A DNA stretch of 64,000 nucleotides from Pseudomonas putida (GTDB lineage: Bacteria; Pseudomonadota; Gammaproteobacteria; Pseudomonadales; Pseudomonadaceae): the NCBI RefSeq assembly GCF_028682455.1, contig NZ_JANHLD010000001.1, forward strand, positions 1,364,001 through 1,428,000, read 5' to 3'. Every line of letters starts with the position of its first letter. Within the stretch, counting starts at the first letter, position 1. Below are positions 36,334 to 47,110 of the stretch, one piece after another. The notes beneath the pieces were generated by a model that saw only the letters and a list, made by a program, of their open reading frames with translations, had not been told where the DNA came from and searched no databases. A program made the position numbers and the translations under genes.

Positions 36334-37206
36334 TCAGTTGTACAGCCAGGGCTCCAACTCACCCAGGTTCTTCACCACAATTTGCTGCGCTTCTGGCCGG
36401 GGCTCCATTTTTGTTGGGTCGATCTGATAACGCTGCAATACATATTTCACCAGCGCCCTGCGAGTAGGTATCAGTAATTGGCCATTCAGCATGCCGAAAT
36501 CGGCTTCAATGATCGCCTTCTGCTCATCTGTTAGTCGCGAATCGGGCTCGATGACCAATGTTACTTCGGCATTCCAGGCCTCATCCTCTTCAATCACATT
36601 CTTGGATTTTCCTTCCAGGATGGGGGCTCCGCGCAATCGACTAAGTACAAAGTCGCGATACTGGCCGTTCTTCTCGCAATAGGCGCGTGCATGCCAACGC
36701 ATACCGGTATAGACCAAGGTGTGTGGTGCGATGAGCCGGCCTTCTGGGGCGGGGTTGTTTAGTGACACATAGTCGATATCCAGGCGTAGGTGGTCGCGGC
36801 AAGCCTTGAGCAGCGGTCTAAGAATCTCCGGCTTGATTGAGCGATCTGGCACCTCCAGCACCTTGGTGTGGGCATAGGCCAGCGCCAGGCCTTCGATGTG
36901 CGGGGCTCGCTCGTTGTTCTGATAAAGCAGGTGCAGATAGGCACTGGCGCTGTCGTCGATGAACAGCGGCTTGAACTGCGTGCTCGGGACGTAGCCCTTG
37001 AGCTGCTTGTCATATGTCAAGTTTCGGGGCGCATGTTCGGTGATGTAGGTATTGATGTCTTTCGACGCCTGCTGGCGGCTGATGCCGAAGCTCTGGATCA
37101 AGTGTCCCGTGGTCAGCCGGCCCTCCCACCAGGCAACGGTCTCAATCAAACGATAGCGAAGTGCCAGATCCCAGCGGACTTGTTCGATCGACTGCTTGCG
37201 TTTCAT
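36334..37206 (-). CDS. WYL-domain transcriptional regulator (BrxR/CapW-like)
   Basis: This 290-aa protein has an N-terminal winged helix (WWEGRLTTGHLIQSFGISRQQASKDINTY, about residue 26-54), a WYL domain (about 125-200, with HTLVYTGMRWHARAYCEKNGQYRDFVLSR) and a C-terminal dimerisation region. Size and layout match BrxR/CapW repressors found with BREX, CBASS and other defence genes. It diverges from a membrane-protein/ADP-ribosylglycohydrolase pair, which it probably controls. Confidence 0.82.
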   Translation of the reverse strand: MKRKQSIEQVRWDLALRYRLIETVAWWEGRLTTGHLIQSFGISRQQASKDINTYITEHAPRNLTYDKQLKGYVPSTQFKPLFIDDSASAYLHLLYQNNERAPHIEGLALAYAHTKVLEVPDRSIKPEILRPLLKACRDHLRLDIDYVSLNNPAPEGRLIAPHTLVYTGMRWHARAYCEKNGQYRDFVLSRLRGAPILEGKSKNVIEEDEAWNAEVTLVIEPDSRLTDEQKAIIEADFGMLNGQLLIPTRRALVKYVLQRYQIDPTKMEPRPEAQQIVVKNLGELEPWLYN

Positions 37207-37242
37207 AACCTCTCCATGTGCGCGAATACTTTACCTGTATAA

Positions 37243-37257
37243 GTCTACATTCTAGAC
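37243..37257. promoter_or_regulatory. Candidate WYL-regulator operator
   Basis: GTCTACATTCTAGAC is an inverted repeat with five-base perfect arms in the divergent gap between the WYL gene and the small membrane protein. ACCTGT occurs on both sides (37233 and 37256). Placement suits autorepression plus control of the divergent pair. Confidence 0.4.
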
Positions 37258-37325
37258 CTGTCGCTAATCACTACATATCGTGTGTTTGTCTTTTAGATGA
37301 ATTGAATTCACGGAAGGAGGTGGGC

Positions 37326-37583
37326 ATGAGTATGTCGGAAGCAGTTTCGACGGGTGCATTGGTGATGATGGGGGCAATCCTGCTGGTGCTTCTGCTGCAG
37401 TGCCTGAGGTTGCGTGAACTCTGGCAAATGGCTCTAGGCTTCCAAAAGGACGTGCGCTGGGCGCGGATTTGGGAAATGGAAAACCGGGAACTGCGTTCGG
37501 CGCTGCGAGCTGAGAAAGCGGACATCGAGCAGTTGCAAAGAAAGCTGGTGATTTTGCAGGAATTGATCCCAGCAGAGGGATAA
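37326..37583 (+). CDS. Small single-pass membrane protein with coiled coil
   Basis: This 85-aa protein has one membrane helix (ALVMMGAILLVLLLQCLRL, about residue 10-28) and a charged coiled coil (ENRELRSALRAEKADIEQLQRKLVILQEL, about 51-79). ATG 37326 has an excellent AAGGAGGTGGG ribosome site. It sits 10 bp before the ADP-ribosylglycohydrolase gene and is likely its membrane partner or regulator. No family recognised. Confidence 0.72.
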   Translation: MSMSEAVSTGALVMMGAILLVLLLQCLRLRELWQMALGFQKDVRWARIWEMENRELRSALRAEKADIEQLQRKLVILQELIPAEG

Positions 37584-37593
37584 GGGAAAGGAC

Positions 37594-38646
37594 ATGAACA
37601 GACTTGAACGGATCAAAGGCTGTCTGCTGGGCGGTGCCGTCGGCGATGCGTTGGGCGCCCCGGTGGAGTTCCTCGAATGGCCTGCAATCGAAGCTAAATT
37701 CGGTCCACAAGGTATCGTTGATTTTGCCCCTGCTTTCGGTATCACCGGCGCCATCACCGACGACACGCAGATGATGCTTTTCACCGCAGAAGGCTTGCTG
37801 CGGGCTTATGTTCGCGGCAGTTCGCGAGGGATTTGCCACGTTCCCAGCATTATCCATCATGCGTTGCTGCGCTGGCTGATGACCCAGGATTACCCTGCGG
37901 CGACGCCTGTCAGCAGGGACGGGTGGCTGATCGAGCAACTGGCGCTCTGGTCTCGCCGCGCCCCTGGCACTACCTGCCTCGGTGCACTCAAGGCCAGTCC
38001 GCGGCTGGGCGCTGTTGCTGAGAACAACAGCAAAGGTTGTGGCGCCTTAATGCGCGTTGCGCCCTGCGCATTCTTTGCTAACGCCTTTGACTACGCTGCC
38101 CAGTCAGGGCGCCTGACCCACGGGCACCCTACGGGCTACCTGGCGGCTGGGCTGTTTGCCGATATTCTCCAGCGCATTGTCGATCGGCAAGACAGCCTGG
38201 AGCACGCAGTCACTCAAAGCTTGGCCAATTATGGGCAAAATCCCGGTATGGAAGAAACACGTAGTCTCATCGAGCGCGTGCTGTTCTTCTTTTACGAAGG
38301 CTACGAGCCCACCCCGCAACGCATCGGCGAACTCGGTGGCGGTTGGGTCGCCGAAGAAGCGTTGGCTATTGGCCTGTGGTGCGCCCTGGCGGCGCGCTCG
38401 TTCGAGGAGGGCGTGATTACGGCGGTGAATCACGGTGGCGACAGTGACAGCACTGGACTGATCGCCGGGCACCTGTTGGGGGCTCAGTATGGTGCTGCGG
38501 CAATTCCTGCGAGGTGGTTCGAACAATTGGAGTTACGCGAGGTGATCGTGCAAATTGCCGAGGATATTGAGCGCATTCCGCTTGAGTACTGTGGGTATGG
38601 CGGAGAGTTCGATCAACAGATCGAGCGGGTATATCCCGGTAATTGA
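37594..38646 (+). CDS. ADP-ribosylglycohydrolase family protein
   Basis: This 350-aa ARH/DraG-like hydrolase removes ADP-ribose from modified targets. Motifs: GCLLGGAVGDALGAPVEF (about residue 9-26), ITDDTQMMLF (Mg ligands, about 53-58) and NHGGDSDSTGLIAGHLLG (second Mg site, about 279-296). No ADP-ribosyltransferase lies beside it. With a WYL repressor and a membrane protein next to it, a role in counteracting phage-made ADP-ribosylation or regulating a defence effector is possible. Confidence 0.88.
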   Translation: MNRLERIKGCLLGGAVGDALGAPVEFLEWPAIEAKFGPQGIVDFAPAFGITGAITDDTQMMLFTAEGLLRAYVRGSSRGICHVPSIIHHALLRWLMTQDYPAATPVSRDGWLIEQLALWSRRAPGTTCLGALKASPRLGAVAENNSKGCGALMRVAPCAFFANAFDYAAQSGRLTHGHPTGYLAAGLFADILQRIVDRQDSLEHAVTQSLANYGQNPGMEETRSLIERVLFFFYEGYEPTPQRIGELGGGWVAEEALAIGLWCALAARSFEEGVITAVNHGGDSDSTGLIAGHLLGAQYGAAAIPARWFEQLELREVIVQIAEDIERIPLEYCGYGGEFDQQIERVYPGN

Positions 38647-40290: not shown

Positions 40291-40536
40291 TTACTCGAGA
40301 ATAATCGAAATGGTTTTGCTGACTTCCTGATTCAGCGTTTCTGCACGCTCCAAGAGATCATCGAAAATGAAGTCTTCCAATTGATGGTGAAGCTGAAACT
40401 CCTTGAGGAGTGCCCATTCAACGCTGGTGATCGTGCCGTCGCGAAGGGCGACCAATAGCAGCTCGAACAGGATTACCTTGGGCGCGGTCGGCAGCTCAAA
40501 TTTCTTGTCCTTGAGTAATTCTTTCAGGGTATTCAT
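40291..40536 (-). pseudogene. C-terminal fragment of TerB-like gene split by ISL3 element
   Basis: The 81-codon ORF reads MNTLKELLKDKKFELPTAPK then ILFELLLVALRDGTITSVEWALLKEF, a helical pattern resembling the TerB/tellurite-resistance fold. Its first three codons (Met-Asn-Thr) come from the end of the insertion sequence; native sequence starts at LKELL. The 5' part is at 43042-43458 in the same frame. It may still be expressed as a truncated product because the element supplies a start codon. Confidence 0.78.
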
Positions 40537-40551
40537 AAAAGCCTGTTGATG
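40527..40551. repeat. Left terminal inverted repeat of the ISL3 element
   Basis: Reads GGGTATTCATAAAAG then CC and TGTTGATG inward. Its complement contains an ATG used by the downstream gene fragment (minus strand). Confidence 0.85.
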
Positions 40552-40561
40552 CAGGAGCTTC

Positions 40562-41932
40562 CTAACCCTCAGCCGAAGGCATCGGGTTGATGTTGATGGG
40601 AGGCTCCAGCAGGAACTCCAGCAGAGGACGAATGGGCGCCCCCATGTCGCGCATAGAGGGCGCCCGCCCTGCAAGGTTGGCATCTGTCGGGAGGCCGTAG
40701 CCCATAGTGAATGGCGATTCCCGGCGGGGCTTTTCCTTGCGCTTCATCTTGTGCTCGACCGAGAACAGAATCTTGGCGCGGAACATCTCGAAGGACATGC
40801 TGCGCGTGAGCCTATTCAGGTCTTTCATTTGCCGGTTCATCGATTCGGTGAAGGCATTGGTGTTGCGCTGCCCGTTACCGAAGTAGGCGAAGATTTCCGC
40901 CTCCCAATTGCTCATTGCTGTGGTCAGTGGTGCCCACTGCGGACGCTCCTCCGGCGTTAGGCTGGAATGCCAGCGCCGGTATTCTTCTTTGGCGTCAGAC
41001 TCATTTTCCAAATTCCAGATGTTCAGGAACTCCTCCTTGAGACGGTAGGCCGCGCCCAGCTCCGGGAATTGGTTGAGCCAGGTATCGACCACCATCCTGT
41101 TCATCGGGTTCAGGTCGTGCTCGCGCATTAGCATCAGCTTTCGGTCGCCCTTGAGCGCCCTGCGGCGATGCTGTGACAGCCCGGCCTTCAGGCTTTTCCT
41201 GATCTTCTCCATGGCTTCATTGGCCATGCGCTGAATGTGGAACTTGTCCACCACGATGGTGGCCTGTGGCATCAGTGCCTTTGTCACCTCGCGGTAGGGG
41301 TTCCACATGTCCATGCACACAATCTCAATGTCCTTGCGGTCTTTGAGACGCGACAGGTAGGCCGTCACCTGTGGCTTGGTGCGTGATTCCAGCAGGTCGA
41401 TGATGGTCTCCTCCTCGATGTTGGTAAGCACGCAGCGATAGGTGCGCTGCAGGTACAGCTCATCAATGCCCAGCACGCGGGGTGCGGTAGGCTTGTAGCG
41501 GTCTTTCTGCGCCTCGAAGTGGTCGCGGAACAAGGTACGGATGACCGACTCATTCACACCCACTTCACGGCCCACGTCACTATTGGTGCGGCCCACCGTG
41601 GCCTTGATGATGTAGTCGGCCAGCCGCCGGGTCATCCGGTTGCTCTCGGCCATCTCCGGCAGCGCCGGGCTGAACGTGGTGTTGCAGGCCCGGCACATGA
41701 AGCGGCGGCGAACCAGCCAGAGCGTGACCCACCGCCCGTGCAGCGGCAGGTCACGGAACTTCACCTGCTTCTTGCCGAATCTGACCACCTCGCCGCACGT
41801 CCCGCAGTTAGGGCAAACCTCGGGGTCGGGATATTCCACCTGGAAGCTGTATTCGTTCTCTTCCTCATGGAAGCCCACTACCGTAGCTTTGAGCGGGTGC
41901 AAAAGCGTTTGCGGGATGGCCAGATCACTCAC
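40562..41932 (-). CDS. ISL3-family transposase
   Basis: This 456-aa transposase has an N-terminal zinc ribbon (PEVCPNCGTCGEVVRFG and RRFMCRACNTTFSP), an HTH (about residue 100-130) and the DDE_Tnp_ISL3 core: GIDELYLQRTYRCVLTN, VCMDMWNPYREVTKALMPQA, VVDKFHIQRMANEAMEKIR and a late FTESMNRQMKDLNRL (catalytic Glu). All parts are intact, so it may be active. Its ATG overlaps the Bro-N stop by 4 bp. Confidence 0.94.
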   Translation of the reverse strand: MSDLAIPQTLLHPLKATVVGFHEEENEYSFQVEYPDPEVCPNCGTCGEVVRFGKKQVKFRDLPLHGRWVTLWLVRRRFMCRACNTTFSPALPEMAESNRMTRRLADYIIKATVGRTNSDVGREVGVNESVIRTLFRDHFEAQKDRYKPTAPRVLGIDELYLQRTYRCVLTNIEEETIIDLLESRTKPQVTAYLSRLKDRKDIEIVCMDMWNPYREVTKALMPQATIVVDKFHIQRMANEAMEKIRKSLKAGLSQHRRRALKGDRKLMLMREHDLNPMNRMVVDTWLNQFPELGAAYRLKEEFLNIWNLENESDAKEEYRRWHSSLTPEERPQWAPLTTAMSNWEAEIFAYFGNGQRNTNAFTESMNRQMKDLNRLTRSMSFEMFRAKILFSVEHKMKRKEKPRRESPFTMGYGLPTDANLAGRAPSMRDMGAPIRPLLEFLLEPPININPMPSAEG

Positions 41933-42705
41933 GCCAGTTTCCTCGAAGAGTCGCGGCGCAAGCGCTCGCTAAAAGCGCCAAGATGGCAGGCTACGCGCTT
42001 GTTCAGCGCATCCAACATGTCAGGCAGTCGCTCCATCGGGACATGCTGGGCAATGTCGAAGTAGTCATCCTTGGCAAAGCTCACAACAGATGCATCACCA
42101 GGAATCAGGCGGCAGTTCATTTGACCGATGGAATTGAAGGACACCAACATGCGCTGACTCATCAGCGCATGGGCCAAGATGGCCTGGAGTACTTCGGTCT
42201 GCACGCCATCAATGTGGTGGCGTGTTTTGCCTGCCTTGATCGCCTCGTAGTAGGCATTGAGGTAGTCGTCGGCTACCTCACGCATAACTTTCATGGACGG
42301 GGCGTCTGTCACGTCCAAAGCGGGCGCGGCTTCGAATTTCTGGTAACCCCCTGTCTTACGGATGGCTGGAAGAACTTCGTGGGTGATCCACCGCTTGAAC
42401 CGCTTGGCCTCTTCCTTGCGGCTGGTCAGAATCAGGCTGTACAGGCCCGATTCGCTGACGATCATCACTTCCTGTGAGCCTCCAGGGGTGTAAACATTAC
42501 TTACACCCTTTTCGTCATCATCCAGCCTTGACACTGCCATCCGTGGGTTGGTGTGTGCAAGTGCCGCGCACACATCAGCGGCAACAAACCAGATTTCGCC
42601 ATCACGGTTGACCGTGCGAACTGGCAAGTGGTCAAAGTTGAAGGTCTGGTGCGGGGTGTCGTCAGTAGCGACGCCCTGAGGGAGCAGATTGGATTGAGCA
42701 GCCAC
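41929..42705 (-). CDS. Bro-N domain antirepressor-like protein in the insertion sequence
   Basis: The 258-aa protein has an N-terminal Bro-N domain (PVRTVNRDGEIWFVAADVCAALAHTNPRMAVSRLDDDEKGV then MIVSESGLYSLILTSRKEEAKRFKRWITHEVLPAIRKTG), typical of phage antirepressors. The C-terminal half is an uncharacterised helical region. It lies inside the element's inverted repeats and is coupled to the transposase, so it is a passenger or regulator of the element. Confidence 0.88.
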   Translation of the reverse strand: MAAQSNLLPQGVATDDTPHQTFNFDHLPVRTVNRDGEIWFVAADVCAALAHTNPRMAVSRLDDDEKGVSNVYTPGGSQEVMIVSESGLYSLILTSRKEEAKRFKRWITHEVLPAIRKTGGYQKFEAAPALDVTDAPSMKVMREVADDYLNAYYEAIKAGKTRHHIDGVQTEVLQAILAHALMSQRMLVSFNSIGQMNCRLIPGDASVVSFAKDDYFDIAQHVPMERLPDMLDALNKRVACHLGAFSERLRRDSSRKLA

Positions 42706-42886
42706 GATGGCCTCCTAGAGATCGTTCAATTTCGCCTCCTGTTCAGAGAGGCGGCCGGGCGCTTGAACACCGCTCTAGGACGGCCCGCAGATTTCCCCCG
42801 AAGGGTCTTGTATAGCTGCGCGCCACCCGGCCATAAGCATGCATTGTCCCGCATTGGAAGGCAGCGCAAAACCTACGGACGTGAAA

Positions 42887-42914
42887 AAGCCGCTTTGACT
42901 TTCGGGAGCGGCTT
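42887..42914 (-). terminator. Rho-independent terminator inside the insertion sequence
   Basis: AAGCCGCT/AGCGGCTT forms an eight-base-pair stem; on the minus strand it is followed by CTTTTTCAC. It faces transcripts entering the element from the WYL-led operon and would make the insertion polar on the downstream genes. Confidence 0.7.
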
Positions 42915-43028
42915 CCGCCTAGAGAGGTGTGTTCAGCACCTGAGATGAACTCTAACGCCTTGCCCCATGACTGTCAACATCTTTTCTCGAAATCAAAAAG
43001 CAGTTGTAGCAACGGAGAGTCGGGAGAC

Positions 43029-43053
43029 CATCAACAACCTTTTATGAATACCC
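43029..43053. repeat. Right terminal inverted repeat of the ISL3 element
   Basis: Complement of the left end with two mismatches. On the minus strand its first bases add Gly-Tyr-Ser and a TAA stop to the interrupted gene. Confidence 0.85.
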
Positions 43054-43458
43054 TTTCAGAACGGTCGTGGCAGCTTGCACCCGGGTTTCAGGCCTTTCCG
43101 CTTTGGAAACTGGATACTTTTTGAGGGCTTCGATGAGTTGTGCCGCCACATCATCGGACGGCTTTCCCCCAAACATGAAAGCAGCGGGGGAAGAACGTCC
43201 AAACATGCTACTGGAGGTGGAAGCACTTCCAAACATGCTAGTGGAGAGCGATGGGCGTGTGATGGACTGCTCAAGCTCAGCGATCATTTCGCGCTCTTTT
43301 TCGCCTTCTTGAATGGAAAGCGCACTGAGATCGGTGCTGGAGGTAAATTCATCTGATGTCTTTCCGTCCCACAACAGCGGCTTGTCAGCTAGGGCCAACA
43401 GTTTTGCGAGATCAAGTAGGTGTTTTTGGTCCGGTTCGGACAAGAGTTTGAGCAGCAT
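43042..43458 (-). pseudogene. N-terminal part of TerB-like gene split by ISL3 element
   Basis: The 138-codon ORF starts MLLKLLSEPDQKHLLDLAKL with ALADKPLLWDGK, a TerB-like first helix pair, then a low-complexity SMFG-rich middle (three copies of MFG) and a second helix region ending TTVLK. The last three codons and stop come from the element's end. Joined to 40291-40526 it gives one 211-aa protein. Found 49 bp after the 521-aa membrane protein gene. Confidence 0.78.
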
Positions 43459-43507: not shown

Positions 43508-45073
43508 TTACAGCATCAGAGGGCTGTCGGAACTCATGAAGTCGTCGAGTTCCTCAATAGATTGGAATTGCAGTTGTTTGCCCAGCAAGGTGGCGTATTG
43601 ATTGACAGCGGCTGCCAAGGCATCAACGTTGCCGCTGCCGGCGGCATCCACAATGGCAAACAAACGTTGAGTTTCTTGCTGCAATTGGGGGATTTCACGA
43701 TGCGTGAAGTCATCCAGTTGAGCTTGTTCTTCAGCAATCTGGTCGCGGGCGGCGGCCTCGATGGCACGGATGCGCGCCAGTTGCTGACGGGAAAGCTCGA
43801 CGCCGCGGGCGGCATCCAATGCGCTTTGGTAGAAAAGCGAAGATAGGGTGTAGCCGATCATCCCACCAATAGCAGCACCGACAAAGGGCACAGGAATCGC
43901 CAATTGTCCGAGTGCAGCCATCATGCTGCTGGAAAGCATGCCGGCGCCTTTCTCACCCACTTCACTCAGCAATTGCGCCTCGCTGATCTCGCCTGTGACG
44001 TAACGTTTGACCGAGCTGCCCAGTGACAGGCAGATGTTGATCGCCAACGCCGGAGCGTTGGTGCCGGCGAGCGTGCGCAAGGTTTGGTTGCTTGATTGCT
44101 GCATGCCACCTTTGAGCGCGGAGCCAGCGAAAGCTGTGGTGTATCCAAGGGCACCGGCTTTAACTGTGTCGAGGGCCAAATCTTGGGCAGCTTCACCCAA
44201 TTGCTTTTTGTCTTGGGCGACGTTGAACGCATTGGTCAGCAGTGAAATAACGCCACCGATAACCGCGCCGTACTTTGCGCCCTCCATACCGGCCCGGTGG
44301 CTGGTACGGGCAATATCTTTCATCGTCTCGCGCAGCGGCTTTTCGGCGTAGTCGATGGCCTGCTCGGTCGTGATGCCAAGGTCAACGATGTCTTCTTTAG
44401 CAAGCTTGTCGAACCTGTCGGCGCGCTCGCGGAATTTTTCGGCGAGCTCCGGTTTTCCTTTTTGCTCTGCCTTCAGTGCGTGTTTTCTTAAATTTTCCGC
44501 ACGATTGCGGCAGTAAGTTTTTGCGTCTTCGACCTGTTCGCTGGGCAGTTCCAGCTTCTTGCCGAAATACTTGTTGTACTTGTGATCCTCATGGCTCACC
44601 TGGTTGGCAACCTTGTTTCCGCTGGCCTCCAACTTGGTCTGAGCTTCGTAAATGATCTTGCCGTTTTCATCCACGCGGACGCGATCCACCGCTTCGCGGT
44701 ACTTGGAATCGGTCTCAATGCCGTAATGCTTCAAATCATCGCTGCGAATCGTTCGCTCAGACGATTTGTTGATGATGGCTTCGGCATTGTCACGACTGGT
44801 GCCCGCCACTTCGCCCGTCCAACCCGCTCGTTGTTTGACGCCGGTTTTTTCCTGGCTGATGCCTTTCAGGCCCTTGCTGAGAATTTTGCCGGCTTCGTTG
44901 TCGATACCAGTGTAGGCTTTGATGAACTCGGCATTGGCACTGCCATAGCGGCTGACAATTTCACTCGTAGAAAGCGCTGTCGCGGTGCGGGCGATATCCC
45001 GTTCAATTTCGTCTCTGCTATTGTTTTGCACACTCGCGGTAGAAGCAGGCGCAAAGGTATCTTGGGACTTCAT
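43508..45073 (-). CDS. 521-aa membrane protein with soluble N-domain (candidate defence component)
   Basis: Residues 1-255 are soluble and charged, with a segment GWTGEVAGTSRDNAEAIINK followed by RVRVDENGKIIYEAQTKLEA (about residue 84-150) that resembles nuclease-like or toxin-like domains of other mobile-element proteins, unproven. Two glycine-rich hydrophobic regions follow: GAKYGAVIGGVISLLTNAF (about 265-285) and VPFVGAAIGGMIGYTLSSLFY (about 393-415), then a C-terminal coiled coil. ATG 45073 overlaps the WYL stop. No named family recognised. Confidence 0.75.
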   Translation of the reverse strand: MKSQDTFAPASTASVQNNSRDEIERDIARTATALSTSEIVSRYGSANAEFIKAYTGIDNEAGKILSKGLKGISQEKTGVKQRAGWTGEVAGTSRDNAEAIINKSSERTIRSDDLKHYGIETDSKYREAVDRVRVDENGKIIYEAQTKLEASGNKVANQVSHEDHKYNKYFGKKLELPSEQVEDAKTYCRNRAENLRKHALKAEQKGKPELAEKFRERADRFDKLAKEDIVDLGITTEQAIDYAEKPLRETMKDIARTSHRAGMEGAKYGAVIGGVISLLTNAFNVAQDKKQLGEAAQDLALDTVKAGALGYTTAFAGSALKGGMQQSSNQTLRTLAGTNAPALAINICLSLGSSVKRYVTGEISEAQLLSEVGEKGAGMLSSSMMAALGQLAIPVPFVGAAIGGMIGYTLSSLFYQSALDAARGVELSRQQLARIRAIEAAARDQIAEEQAQLDDFTHREIPQLQQETQRLFAIVDAAGSGNVDALAAAVNQYATLLGKQLQFQSIEELDDFMSSDSPLML

Positions 45074-46140
45074 GGAGCCTCCTGGCAGGCGTGTGCATTG
45101 GTAATGGTGGGCAAGTGGTTTGGGATGGGCTGCGTATACAGGGCTCCCATTTTGATTAGTCTCCCTTTGATTACATCCACCCAATGCTTCGGTTCATGCA
45201 GGCGGACGCTCTCTCCCAGCCCAAACACCCACCAGAGCGTTTCCTGATCGTCCGGCACCTTGGCGTGCAGGCGTTGCCAATCGCTGCCTGGCAACGGCTT
45301 CAGGCTTTGCTTGGGGCTAAGCGGGGTTTCATTCAGCAGCCAGGCGATCTGTGGGGATACGTCGGCGATCAGTTCGTGGTGTTCGATCGGGCCGGGACTG
45401 TTGAAACCGCCGCTCTGGATGTAATGATCGATCTCGAAGTCGGGTTGTTCGCGGGTCGGCGCATCGAGGCACGCTGCCTGCTGGATGCGGTGCAGGGCGA
45501 ATTGGCGAACGTCTGTGTAACCTTCGACAGTACCGATCAGGTAGCTGACGGAGTGGCGCGAGATCATGCCGGCGGGGTGTATGCGTAGGGTCTTGTACTC
45601 GCTCTTGCTGCGGCTTAGGTAGACGATCTCCAGTTGCCGCGTTTCCAACAGGGAGGTCGCCACCTGGGACCAGATGGCCGCGTCCACTTCGGCGGGTTGG
45701 AGCGCCTTGCCGTTAGGCAGGGTGCGCACGCGTCTGGCCCAGTGCGCCAGGTTGTTATGTTCCAGCCCTTGGAGTTGCCGGTGCGCCAGGTCGAAGTGGT
45801 GCGCTAGCAGGCTCAGCACACTGGGTGGTAGCAGCTTACTCAGGTGGCTTTCGGCGAGGACGAAGGCCAGTGCTGTGGGGGTGTCCAGCGCCGGAAAGTC
45901 GAATTGTGGAGTGTCCTTGGGAAAGCTCCAGAGATAGGGCCGTTGGCTTTCGTCACAGAGCAGTGGAAAGTCCAGGGCGAGGCGGCCGATGAGGTCCCGT
46001 TGCAAGGTTCGACGGTCGATGTCGAAATTCTCGGCTTTGAGTCTTTGCAGCAGTTCGGTGGTGGAAATGCTCTTGGGCGCGCGCGGGATAAGGCGCAGCA
46101 GGGCCAGGTGCCTGAACAGCCTGTCTTTGGGATCTGACAT
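45070..46140 (-). CDS. WYL-domain transcriptional regulator heading the membrane-protein operon
   Basis: This 356-aa protein has an N-terminal winged helix (RAPKSISTTELLQRLKAENFDIDRRTLQRDL, about residue 20-50), a WYL domain (about 150-230, with QLEIVYLSRSKSEYKTLRIHPAGMISRHSVSYLIGTV) and a WCX C-terminal extension (about 270-340). Its stop overlaps the start of the 521-aa membrane protein gene by 4 bp, so regulator and effector are co-made. It differs clearly from the shorter WYL protein at 36334. Confidence 0.88.
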   Translation of the reverse strand: MSDPKDRLFRHLALLRLIPRAPKSISTTELLQRLKAENFDIDRRTLQRDLIGRLALDFPLLCDESQRPYLWSFPKDTPQFDFPALDTPTALAFVLAESHLSKLLPPSVLSLLAHHFDLAHRQLQGLEHNNLAHWARRVRTLPNGKALQPAEVDAAIWSQVATSLLETRQLEIVYLSRSKSEYKTLRIHPAGMISRHSVSYLIGTVEGYTDVRQFALHRIQQAACLDAPTREQPDFEIDHYIQSGGFNSPGPIEHHELIADVSPQIAWLLNETPLSPKQSLKPLPGSDWQRLHAKVPDDQETLWWVFGLGESVRLHEPKHWVDVIKGRLIKMGALYTQPIPNHLPTITNAHACQEAP

Positions 46141-46494: not shown

Positions 46495-46722
46495 CTAATC
46501 GACAGCGGCTGTGTGGCGCTCCTCTTCACTTGGTACACCTCTAGAACTCGCCACCTCCGGGAATGAGCCCAGGCCCATTTCCCTGCGACGGCCTGCCAGT
46601 TGGAAACGAAGCAGCCAAGATTTGCGCCCGGTAGGTTTGACGACCAAGCGAAGCCCATCACCATCATCATAGGTGCCGGGTTCGGTCAGGTTTTCGACTT
46701 GTTTCGGATTTAGCTTACCCAT
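46495..46722 (-). pseudogene. Truncated tyrosine recombinase (island integrase remnant)
   Basis: The N-terminus MGKLNPKQVENLTEPGTYDD then RLVVKPTGRKSWLLRFQLAGRR and MGLGSFPEV is the DUF4102 arm-binding domain of CP4-57-type island integrases. Homology stops after about 58 codons and the frame runs into unrelated residues, so the core-binding and catalytic domains are gone. It points away from the right island end, as expected for an att-proximal integrase. Confidence 0.85.
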
Positions 46723-47110
46723 TGGATTTCCCCTGTCGTCCCTTTTGTCCCCCCACTTGTCCCCCACCTCATCGTCGGATGAGGTCAGATGGCGTTGAAC
46801 ACCATCGGACAGGGGAACGCCTCAAACGCCCGTGATAGCTAGGCTATCGGCAGGATCATCGGATGGGATAGGATTATTTTGGACAATTAAAAAGCCGGCT
46901 TGTGGCCGGCTTCTCGGGGACGGCCTTGGCTAATTTTTGGTAAGCCGCAACCGCCTTCAAAACGTTGTCCGGTGCTGGGACCGGTACGGCGGACAAGCTG
47001 TGTGTCGTCTCGCCGGGCCCCTGGGCGTGCATGGCAAGCCGGGGGCGAAATGTGCGGCGTAGCATACTGGGAATGAGCCGCAATGCCCAGCAAAAAATCA
47101 ATGCGCCCGC
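46723..47110. other. Right island junction, no clear gene
   Basis: The 388-bp stretch holds the integrase leader with GTCCCCCCACTTGTCCCCCAC (46748-46768), an AT-rich patch near 46860-46890 and the right repeat. Downstream of the repeat, a minus-strand frame ending ...AAYQKLAKAVPEKP runs across the junction from about 47100, but it lacks a convincing start and may be a chance ORF or a chromosomal gene remnant cut by integration. Confidence 0.4.
46886..46912. repeat. Right island direct repeat (attR)
   Basis: Identical over 27 bp to 35587-35613, including the terminator-like stem. Flanking bases differ on both sides, which defines the repeat limits. Confidence 0.8.

What the first reader, a model, noticed from the sequence alone, without database searches (positions are those of the whole stretch)
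40291..43458. Insertion sequence splits one gene; removal restores the frame exactly
On the minus strand the left ORF ends ...ACC GTT CTG AAA then IS sequence; the right ORF resumes at TGAAA GAA TTA CTC after the IS. TGAAA (TTTCA on plus) is duplicated. Deleting the IS plus one copy gives ...TTVLK-ELLKDKK..., a single 211-codon ORF. So two apparent hypothetical genes are halves of one.
Basis: seen in the sequence. Interest (0 to 1): 0.75.

Follow-up and report, generated by a model that had tools for sequence, protein, structure and literature searches.

The report
Jumping gene splits operon gene
A mobile DNA element has landed inside one gene of a five-gene Pseudomonas operon that may be a phage-defence system, so that one gene looks like two; this is a common kind of event, but the gene and the element's extra passenger gene are little known.

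Summary
An ISL3-family insertion sequence (window 40527-43053, 2527 bp, perfect 15-bp end repeats) interrupts one minus-strand gene, here called X: 135 codons upstream, 76 downstream, 211 together, with TTTCA on both sides. Seven distinct intact X genes in other genomes align through the junction without a gap; P. reinekei shows the empty site, with exactly five bases duplicated. Of 398 same-genus genomes, only this one has X in halves.

Beyond the finding: all seven intact X genes found lie in the same operon, WYL-B-X-A-YkgJ. A and B match, weakly, PADLOC's candidate system PDC-M09; X reaches no family cut-off in the libraries searched. In P. reinekei a ZacABC defence system follows the operon; flanks of three other loci gave no defence match. 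The element carries a BRO gene overlapping its transposase by 4 bp, has four near-identical copies, and has 8-bp duplications at the other three sites, so 5 bp here is atypical. Its ends supply a stop for the upstream piece and a possible start for the downstream piece.

Verdict: a real, ordinary IS interruption of an undescribed gene in a candidate defence operon.

The parts
43054..43458 (-). Upstream (N-terminal) piece of gene X, 135 codons; as it stands it reads 3 codons (GYS) into the element's end and stops at TAA, 138 aa
   Evidence: intact orthologues
40291..40521 (-). Downstream (C-terminal) piece of gene X, 76 codons plus stop; faintly TerB-like (below Pfam cut-off)
40522..40526 (+). 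Target duplication, copy 1 (TTTCA on plus)
43054..43058 (+). Target duplication, copy 2 (TTTCA on plus)
40527..43053 (-). ISL3-family insertion sequence, 2527 bp
40527..40541 (+). Terminal inverted repeat next to the downstream piece; outward it holds an ATG (first base at 40536, minus strand) in frame with that piece, which would give MNTLKELL..., 81 aa
43039..43053 (-). Terminal inverted repeat next to the upstream piece; read inward it supplies the in-frame TAA stop
40562..41932 (-). ISL3-family transposase, 456 aa
   Evidence: PF01610 E 9.9e-58; NF033550 307.3 bits against cut-off 180
41929..42705 (-). BRO-family passenger gene (Bro-N domain), 258 aa, overlaps the transposase start by 4 bp
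   Evidence: PF02498 86.8 bits against cut-off 25.6; coordinates
45070..46140 (-). Operon gene 1, WYL-domain protein
43508..45073 (-). Operon gene 2, protein B (PDC-M09B-like, weak)
   Evidence: PDLC04409 E 1.6e-13, 48 bits
39252..40280 (-). Operon gene 4, protein A (PDC-M09A-like, glycine-rich segment)
   Evidence: PDLC04407 E 2.2e-29, 100.9 bits
38858..39169 (-). Operon gene 5, CxxCxxCC (YkgJ-type) protein

Best explanation
An ISL3-family insertion sequence transposed into gene X, the third gene of a WYL-B-X-A-YkgJ operon in a Pseudomonas chromosome, leaving five duplicated target bases and cutting one gene of 211 codons into an N-terminal piece and a C-terminal piece. Shown: the element, its ends, the duplication, the empty site in a relative, the conserved operon. 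Inferred: the event is recent; X is inactivated, because the element's end stops the upstream piece three codons after the break and the downstream piece lacks its own start; the operon is a candidate anti-phage system related to PADLOC's PDC-M09, so that the strain carries a naturally broken copy; the C-terminal piece may still be made from the ATG in the element's end, and the genes A and YkgJ downstream may still be transcribed through the co-directional element. The confidence given is for the insertion account; I hold the inactivation at about 0.8 and the defence role at about 0.5.
For: Element ends, inverted repeats and TTTCA at both sides; four copies in the genome, identical apart from single-base losses in two G runs; seven distinct intact X genes that run through the junction; P. 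reinekei flanks at 88.9% over 3279 positions and 87.9% over 1668, with five duplicated bases at the break; the same gene order in all seven intact loci; no stop inside either piece. In the downstream piece 12 of 77 codons differ from P. reinekei, 10 synonymously. Defence link: A and B match PDC-M09 models; the P. reinekei operon is followed by genes matching ZacA, ZacB and ZacC; A-type genes on four plasmids lie near genes annotated as SIR2, restriction-modification, phosphorothioation-associated or DUF3320.
Against: The duplication is 5 bp where this element otherwise shows 8, so an unusual event or a later 3-bp loss must be assumed. The upstream piece is less clearly under constraint: 8 non-synonymous against 5 synonymous changes in its last 35 codons and 10 against 19 in its first 66. 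The PDC-M09 match of B is partial and far weaker (48 bits) than that of a model-like B protein (673 bits, L011). Of ten flanking proteins tested against PADLOC only the three of one locus (L046) matched; seven from L042, L043 and L050 did not, and the flanks of L047-L049 were not tested. X is absent beside A and B in L027, L044 and L045 as far as phmmer sees, so it is not a necessary part of the A-B pair. No expression data. Most PDC systems are described as lacking validation (PMC12988326, passages).
Confidence: 0.93

Rival explanations
1. The two ORFs are separate genes that happen to flank an insertion sequence.
For: Both are open reading frames with possible starts.
Against: Seven of seven intact relatives found are single genes through the junction; of 398 same-genus genomes only this one has the halves; five duplicated bases at the borders.
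Confidence: 0.01
2. The gene is split but still works: the end repeats give the upstream piece a stop and the downstream piece a start, and the two fragments act together.
For: TAA three codons into one end and an in-frame ATG in the other, 25 nt behind the transposase stop, with AGG five bases before it; no stop inside either piece.
Against: The end repeats are the same in all four copies, so they are not adapted to this site; lack of decay is also expected of a young insertion; no expression data.
Confidence: 0.12
3. The insertion is a reversible switch: the element leaves precisely and restores X in part of the population.
For: The borders are clean.
Against: Excision was not tested and no data on it were found; four near-identical copies at different sites fit simple spread.
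Confidence: 0.05
4. Assembly artefact: a misjoined repeat placed the element here.
For: The element is present four times, the kind of repeat that can mislead assembly.
Against: Each copy has its own flanking duplication and the flanks here are collinear with P. reinekei.
Confidence: 0.02

Closest known systems
ISPpu12 (ISL3 family, Pseudomonas)
   Same: Same transposase family; other genes lie just upstream of and co-directional with the transposase; ISPpu12-like copies occur in this genome (identified by my reading of neighbouring translations as czcD- and lspA-like); a repeat beginning GGGTAT lies behind their transposase, as in this element's ends
   Different: Transposases about 47% identical; ISPpu12a carries tnpR and genes for a lipoprotein signal peptidase and a heavy-metal antiporter (PMC4133298 and PMC4447125, passages read), this element a BRO gene
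ISL3/BRO element on P. aeruginosa plasmid pWTJH12-KPC (NZ_CP064404.1)
   Same: Transposase 88.5% identical, BRO gene in the same place with a 4-bp overlap, end repeats GGGTATTCGGAATAG and GGGTATTCGGAAAAG, 8-bp duplication
   Different: BRO match covers only residues 1-159 of 258; the C-terminal parts differ
Tn7546 (ISL3 transposase with merA and merR)
   Same: ISL3 transposase with other genes; end repeat GGGTCTTCGGA; 8-bp duplication almost always, 7 bp once (PMC9782665, passages read)
   Different: Described from Gram-positive hosts, other cargo
PADLOC candidate system PDC-M09 (A and B)
   Same: Proteins A and B of the operon match both models
   Different: Matches weak and partial; the operon here also has WYL, X and YkgJ; no paper in the library holds the string PDC-M09
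TerB-like proteins (PF05099)
   Same: Weak match in the C-terminal part (14.6 bits)
   Different: Below the Pfam cut-off of 24.4

Membership tests
ISL3-family insertion sequence | ISL3 DDE transposase | tested here: met
   PF01610 196.2 bits against 23; NF033550 307.3 against 180
ISL3-family insertion sequence | Zinc ribbon at the transposase N-terminus | tested here: met
   PF14690 43 bits against 25.5
ISL3-family insertion sequence | Terminal inverted repeats | tested here: met
   Perfect 15 bp
ISL3-family insertion sequence | 8-bp target duplication (recalled; reported for Tn7546 in PMC9782665) | tested here: inconclusive
   5 bp at this site; 8 bp at the three other copies and on the P. 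aeruginosa plasmid
BRO family | Bro-N domain | tested here: met
   86.8 bits against 25.6
PDC-M09 candidate defence system | Protein A and protein B models matched by neighbouring genes | tested here: inconclusive
   Both matched but partly, A 100.9 bits, B 48 bits; PADLOC's own thresholds and gene-distance rules were not applied; X and the element lie between them
PDC-M09 candidate defence system | Protection against phages | not testable with these tools
   Needs a plaque assay; validation described as pending for most PDCs (PMC12988326, passages read)
TerB family (gene X) | Score above the Pfam cut-off | tested here: not met
   14.6 bits against 24.4 for the downstream piece; 2 of 7 rows match even at E 1, best E 0.037

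The most novel reading that the evidence does not exclude
WYL-B-X-A-YkgJ is an undescribed five-gene phage-defence operon related to PDC-M09, in which X is an essential part that the searched catalogues do not hold; this strain is a natural X knock-out, made by an ISL3 element whose BRO gene acts as its own phage- or stress-responsive transposition regulator in place of the tnpR of ISPpu12.
Probability: 0.2. Interest if true: 0.55.

Novelty: new member of a known kind. Interest (0 to 1): 0.3.

Why it matters
For annotation, two hypothetical genes should be read as one interrupted gene. For biology, the break marks a gene that in all seven intact loci found is the third member of one conserved operon, reaches no family cut-off in the libraries searched, and may belong to an untested anti-phage system; a natural interruption and seven intact relatives make it easy to test. 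The element also shows that an ISL3 element of the ISPpu12 layout can carry a phage-type BRO gene.

Tried and rejected
Two separate genes: rejected by seven intact orthologues and by the lack of stand-alone halves in 398 same-genus genomes. Gene X as a TerB protein: rejected as a membership claim, below cut-off. Gene X among solved structures: none at E 1. Structure predictions of X and of B were poor (mean pLDDT 44.8 and 43.7), so no fold search was run. Pieces of X on plasmids: no match; intact P. reinekei X in phages: no match; X in viral contigs: 29 pattern matches, none a relative. Solved-structure matches at E up to 1 (6 sequences for B; 11 for A, the best being programmed cell death protein 10, E 0.0024, over the helical C-terminal part) are taken as chance or coiled-coil likeness, and nothing is built on them. 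A search for the PDC-M09A model in 369 genomes of the class matched 15 at E 0.001, nine of them only at 4.4e-5 to 9.0e-4, and it also rang in 1 of 14 control genomes (Sulfolobus acidocaldarius), so weak matches to that model mean little. B on plasmids: 2 records, Azospirillum and Ruminococcus; A on plasmids: 4 records. The 131-144 aa gene between A and YkgJ on three plasmids was considered as a distant X; phmmer at E 0.5 gave no match, and by eye (untested) it resembles the C-terminal end of B. Of 22 other same-genus genomes with a BRO match at E 1e-20, none has the ISL3 transposase within the roughly 1.5-kb flanks fetched. Papers on an ISL3 element with a BRO gene: searches (5 papers; 15 listed of 194; 3 papers) showed none in the listings; I opened none of these for that question, and PMC10094308, which holds Bro-N, antirepressor and ISL3 in its text, was not read. 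A search for Zac names listed 8 of 501 papers, all unrelated; a general search on insertion sequences in defence islands was seen as a listing only. PHROGs was not searched. Script 76 used a wrong offset for one piece, so its identity and codon counts for X are discarded; one search replaces them (its fragment lengths, frames and the 25-nt gap stand).

Full report
What was claimed and what is there. The minus strand holds two ORFs, 43042-43458 and 40291-40683. Between the gene parts lies an element of 2527 bp, 40527-43053, with perfect 15-bp terminal inverted repeats and TTTCA on both outer sides. The gene part of the first ORF is 43054-43458 (135 codons) and of the second 40291-40521 (76 codons plus stop), together 211.

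Intact relatives. Each piece was searched on its own. In 95 genomes (the own one, 58 others of the genus, 36 of the order) only the own genome matched. Searching 398 same-genus genomes with protein B matched nine, own included; four neighbourhoods were fetched, and two of them, G767 (L042) and G499 (L043), hold an uninterrupted X, while G512 (L044) and G643 (L045) show A and B but no X match. A scan of the genome collection gave five more: Pseudomonas reinekei (L046), a Paucimonas MAG (L047), P. aegrilactucae (L048), P. bharatica (L049) and a Sulfuricella MAG (L050). The seven proteins differ from each other in sequence, so they are seven distinct loci. All run through the junction without a gap. 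A profile search of 398 same-genus genomes matched three: G499 and G767 with full-length X, and the own genome with two partial matches. Stand-alone halves were not seen in any other of the 398. No second genome of the same species was available.

The empty site. P. reinekei DNA aligns to the window at 88.9% (window 46532 to 43261), 88.6% (43157 to 43053) and 87.9% (40527 to 38862). The last two overlap on the P. reinekei sequence by seven positions; the outermost on each side is a chance match to the first base of the element, which leaves the five bases TGAAA. The downstream piece is 219 of 231 bases identical to P. reinekei, with 10 synonymous and 2 non-synonymous codon changes of 77. The last 35 codons of the upstream piece have 5 and 8, the first 66 have 19 and 10, and gene A has 84 and 21 of 343. 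Neither piece has an internal stop. With the near-identical element copies this fits a young insertion, but the upstream piece alone would not show it.

The element. Its transposase is of the ISL3 family. The genome has four copies of the transposase at 100%, three relatives at 47% and one at 28%. The three at 47% sit beside what I read as czcD- and lspA-like genes, as in ISPpu12. The four element copies are identical apart from single-base losses in G runs at alignment columns 255 (one copy) and 703 (two copies); the latter lies in the BRO gene, whose frame is broken in two of four copies. Target duplications are 8 bp at the other three copies (CAAAAAAA, GAAGATCT, TTTTTTTT in the sense of the transposase) and 8 bp for the relative on a P. 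aeruginosa plasmid (AAAATCCA). The 5 bp at this site is thus unusual for this element; a 3-bp loss after an 8-bp duplication would look the same and cannot be told apart. For another ISL3 element, Tn7546, a paper reports 8 bp almost always and 7 bp once (PMC9782665, passages read).

The passenger. 41929-42705 encodes a Bro-N protein and overlaps the transposase start by 4 bp. In the P. aeruginosa relative the same arrangement holds, but the BRO match covers only residues 1-159. Two plasmid records, both P. aeruginosa, have a transposase match of 80-90%, and the same two have the best BRO matches, 67.7%. ISPpu12a carries a regulator gene, tnpR, besides two genes not involved in transposition (PMC4133298, passages read); a paper on TnpR control of ISL3 transposition is cited there and could not be read. 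That BRO might play the part of tnpR is inference.

What the ends do to the gene. Read from X into the element, three codons (GYS) are followed by a stop, so the upstream product is 138 aa. Read outward at the other end, an ATG lies in frame with the downstream piece and would give an 81-aa product beginning MNTLKELL; it lies 25 nt behind the transposase stop, with AGG five bases before it. The repeats that hold this stop and start are the same in all four copies. One promoter-like site lies upstream of BRO (1 found, 1.4 expected by chance), and the two terminator-like sites found (3.6 expected) are both on the plus strand.

The operon. In all seven intact loci the order is WYL, B, X, A, YkgJ; in P. 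aegrilactucae B is split over two frames. B and A also occur together without a detected X on an Azospirillum plasmid (L027) and in L044 and L045, and A occurs with a small protein and YkgJ on three plasmids. X therefore looks like an addition to an A-B core. A and B match the PADLOC candidate system PDC-M09; candidates of this series are described as found by guilt-by-embedding, with validation pending for most (PMC12988326, passages read). In P. reinekei the operon is followed by genes that match ZacA, ZacB and ZacC at 319.7, 513.6 and 940.5 bits. Seven other flanking proteins, from L042, L043 and L050, matched nothing in PADLOC at E 1e-5, one of them being a carbohydrate phosphorylase; L042 has an integrase and a TraI-like protein nearby. 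The window has a fragment with an integrase arm domain at 46495-46767. Together this fits a mobile island, with moderate support for a defence role.

Function of X. In Pfam, NCBIfam and PADLOC the pieces reach no family cut-off, nor do the intact rows in Pfam, and the P. reinekei protein has no PADLOC match. The C-terminal part resembles TerB weakly. The predicted model is too poor to use.

Verdict. The observation and its interpretation are right. As a kind of event it is ordinary. The added value is that the interrupted gene is a conserved, unnamed member of a candidate defence operon, and that the element is an ISL3 element with a BRO gene, seen here in one genome and in two plasmid records.

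Noticed in passing
41929-42705; L001, L002: The BRO gene of the element is frameshifted by one base in a run of five G in two of the four genome copies; real variation or a homopolymer error.
   Followed up: partly
L084:3375-5900: Another copy of the element lies between two pieces that I read as a polysaccharide chain-length (Wzz-type) gene; only the downstream piece was scanned, and it matches the GNVR domain just above its cut-off.
   Followed up: partly
L085:3510-6034; L086:3466-5992: The third and fourth copies lie beside a repressor-like ORF and upstream of a transporter-like ORF (my reading of translations).
   Followed up: no
43189-43246: A 30-bp repeat (1.9 copies, 89% matches) lies in the linker of X, which is longer here than in the seven intact relatives.
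   Followed up: partly
L048:6201-7947: Protein B of P. aegrilactucae is split over two reading frames.
   Followed up: no
L031:4399-5124: The BRO protein of the P. aeruginosa relative matches only over its N-terminal part; the C-terminal part has been exchanged or has diverged.
   Followed up: partly
46495-46767: Short ORF with an integrase arm DNA-binding domain, perhaps a remnant that marks an island edge.
   Followed up: no
36334-38646: A second WYL protein and an ADP-ribosylglycohydrolase lie downstream of the operon; the same pair lies upstream of the operon in P. reinekei.
   Followed up: no
43508-45073, B protein about residues 106-146: A region predicted as strands (low confidence) carries EAQTK where relatives have SQMKF, faintly like a nuclease motif (motif recalled, not tested).
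   Followed up: no
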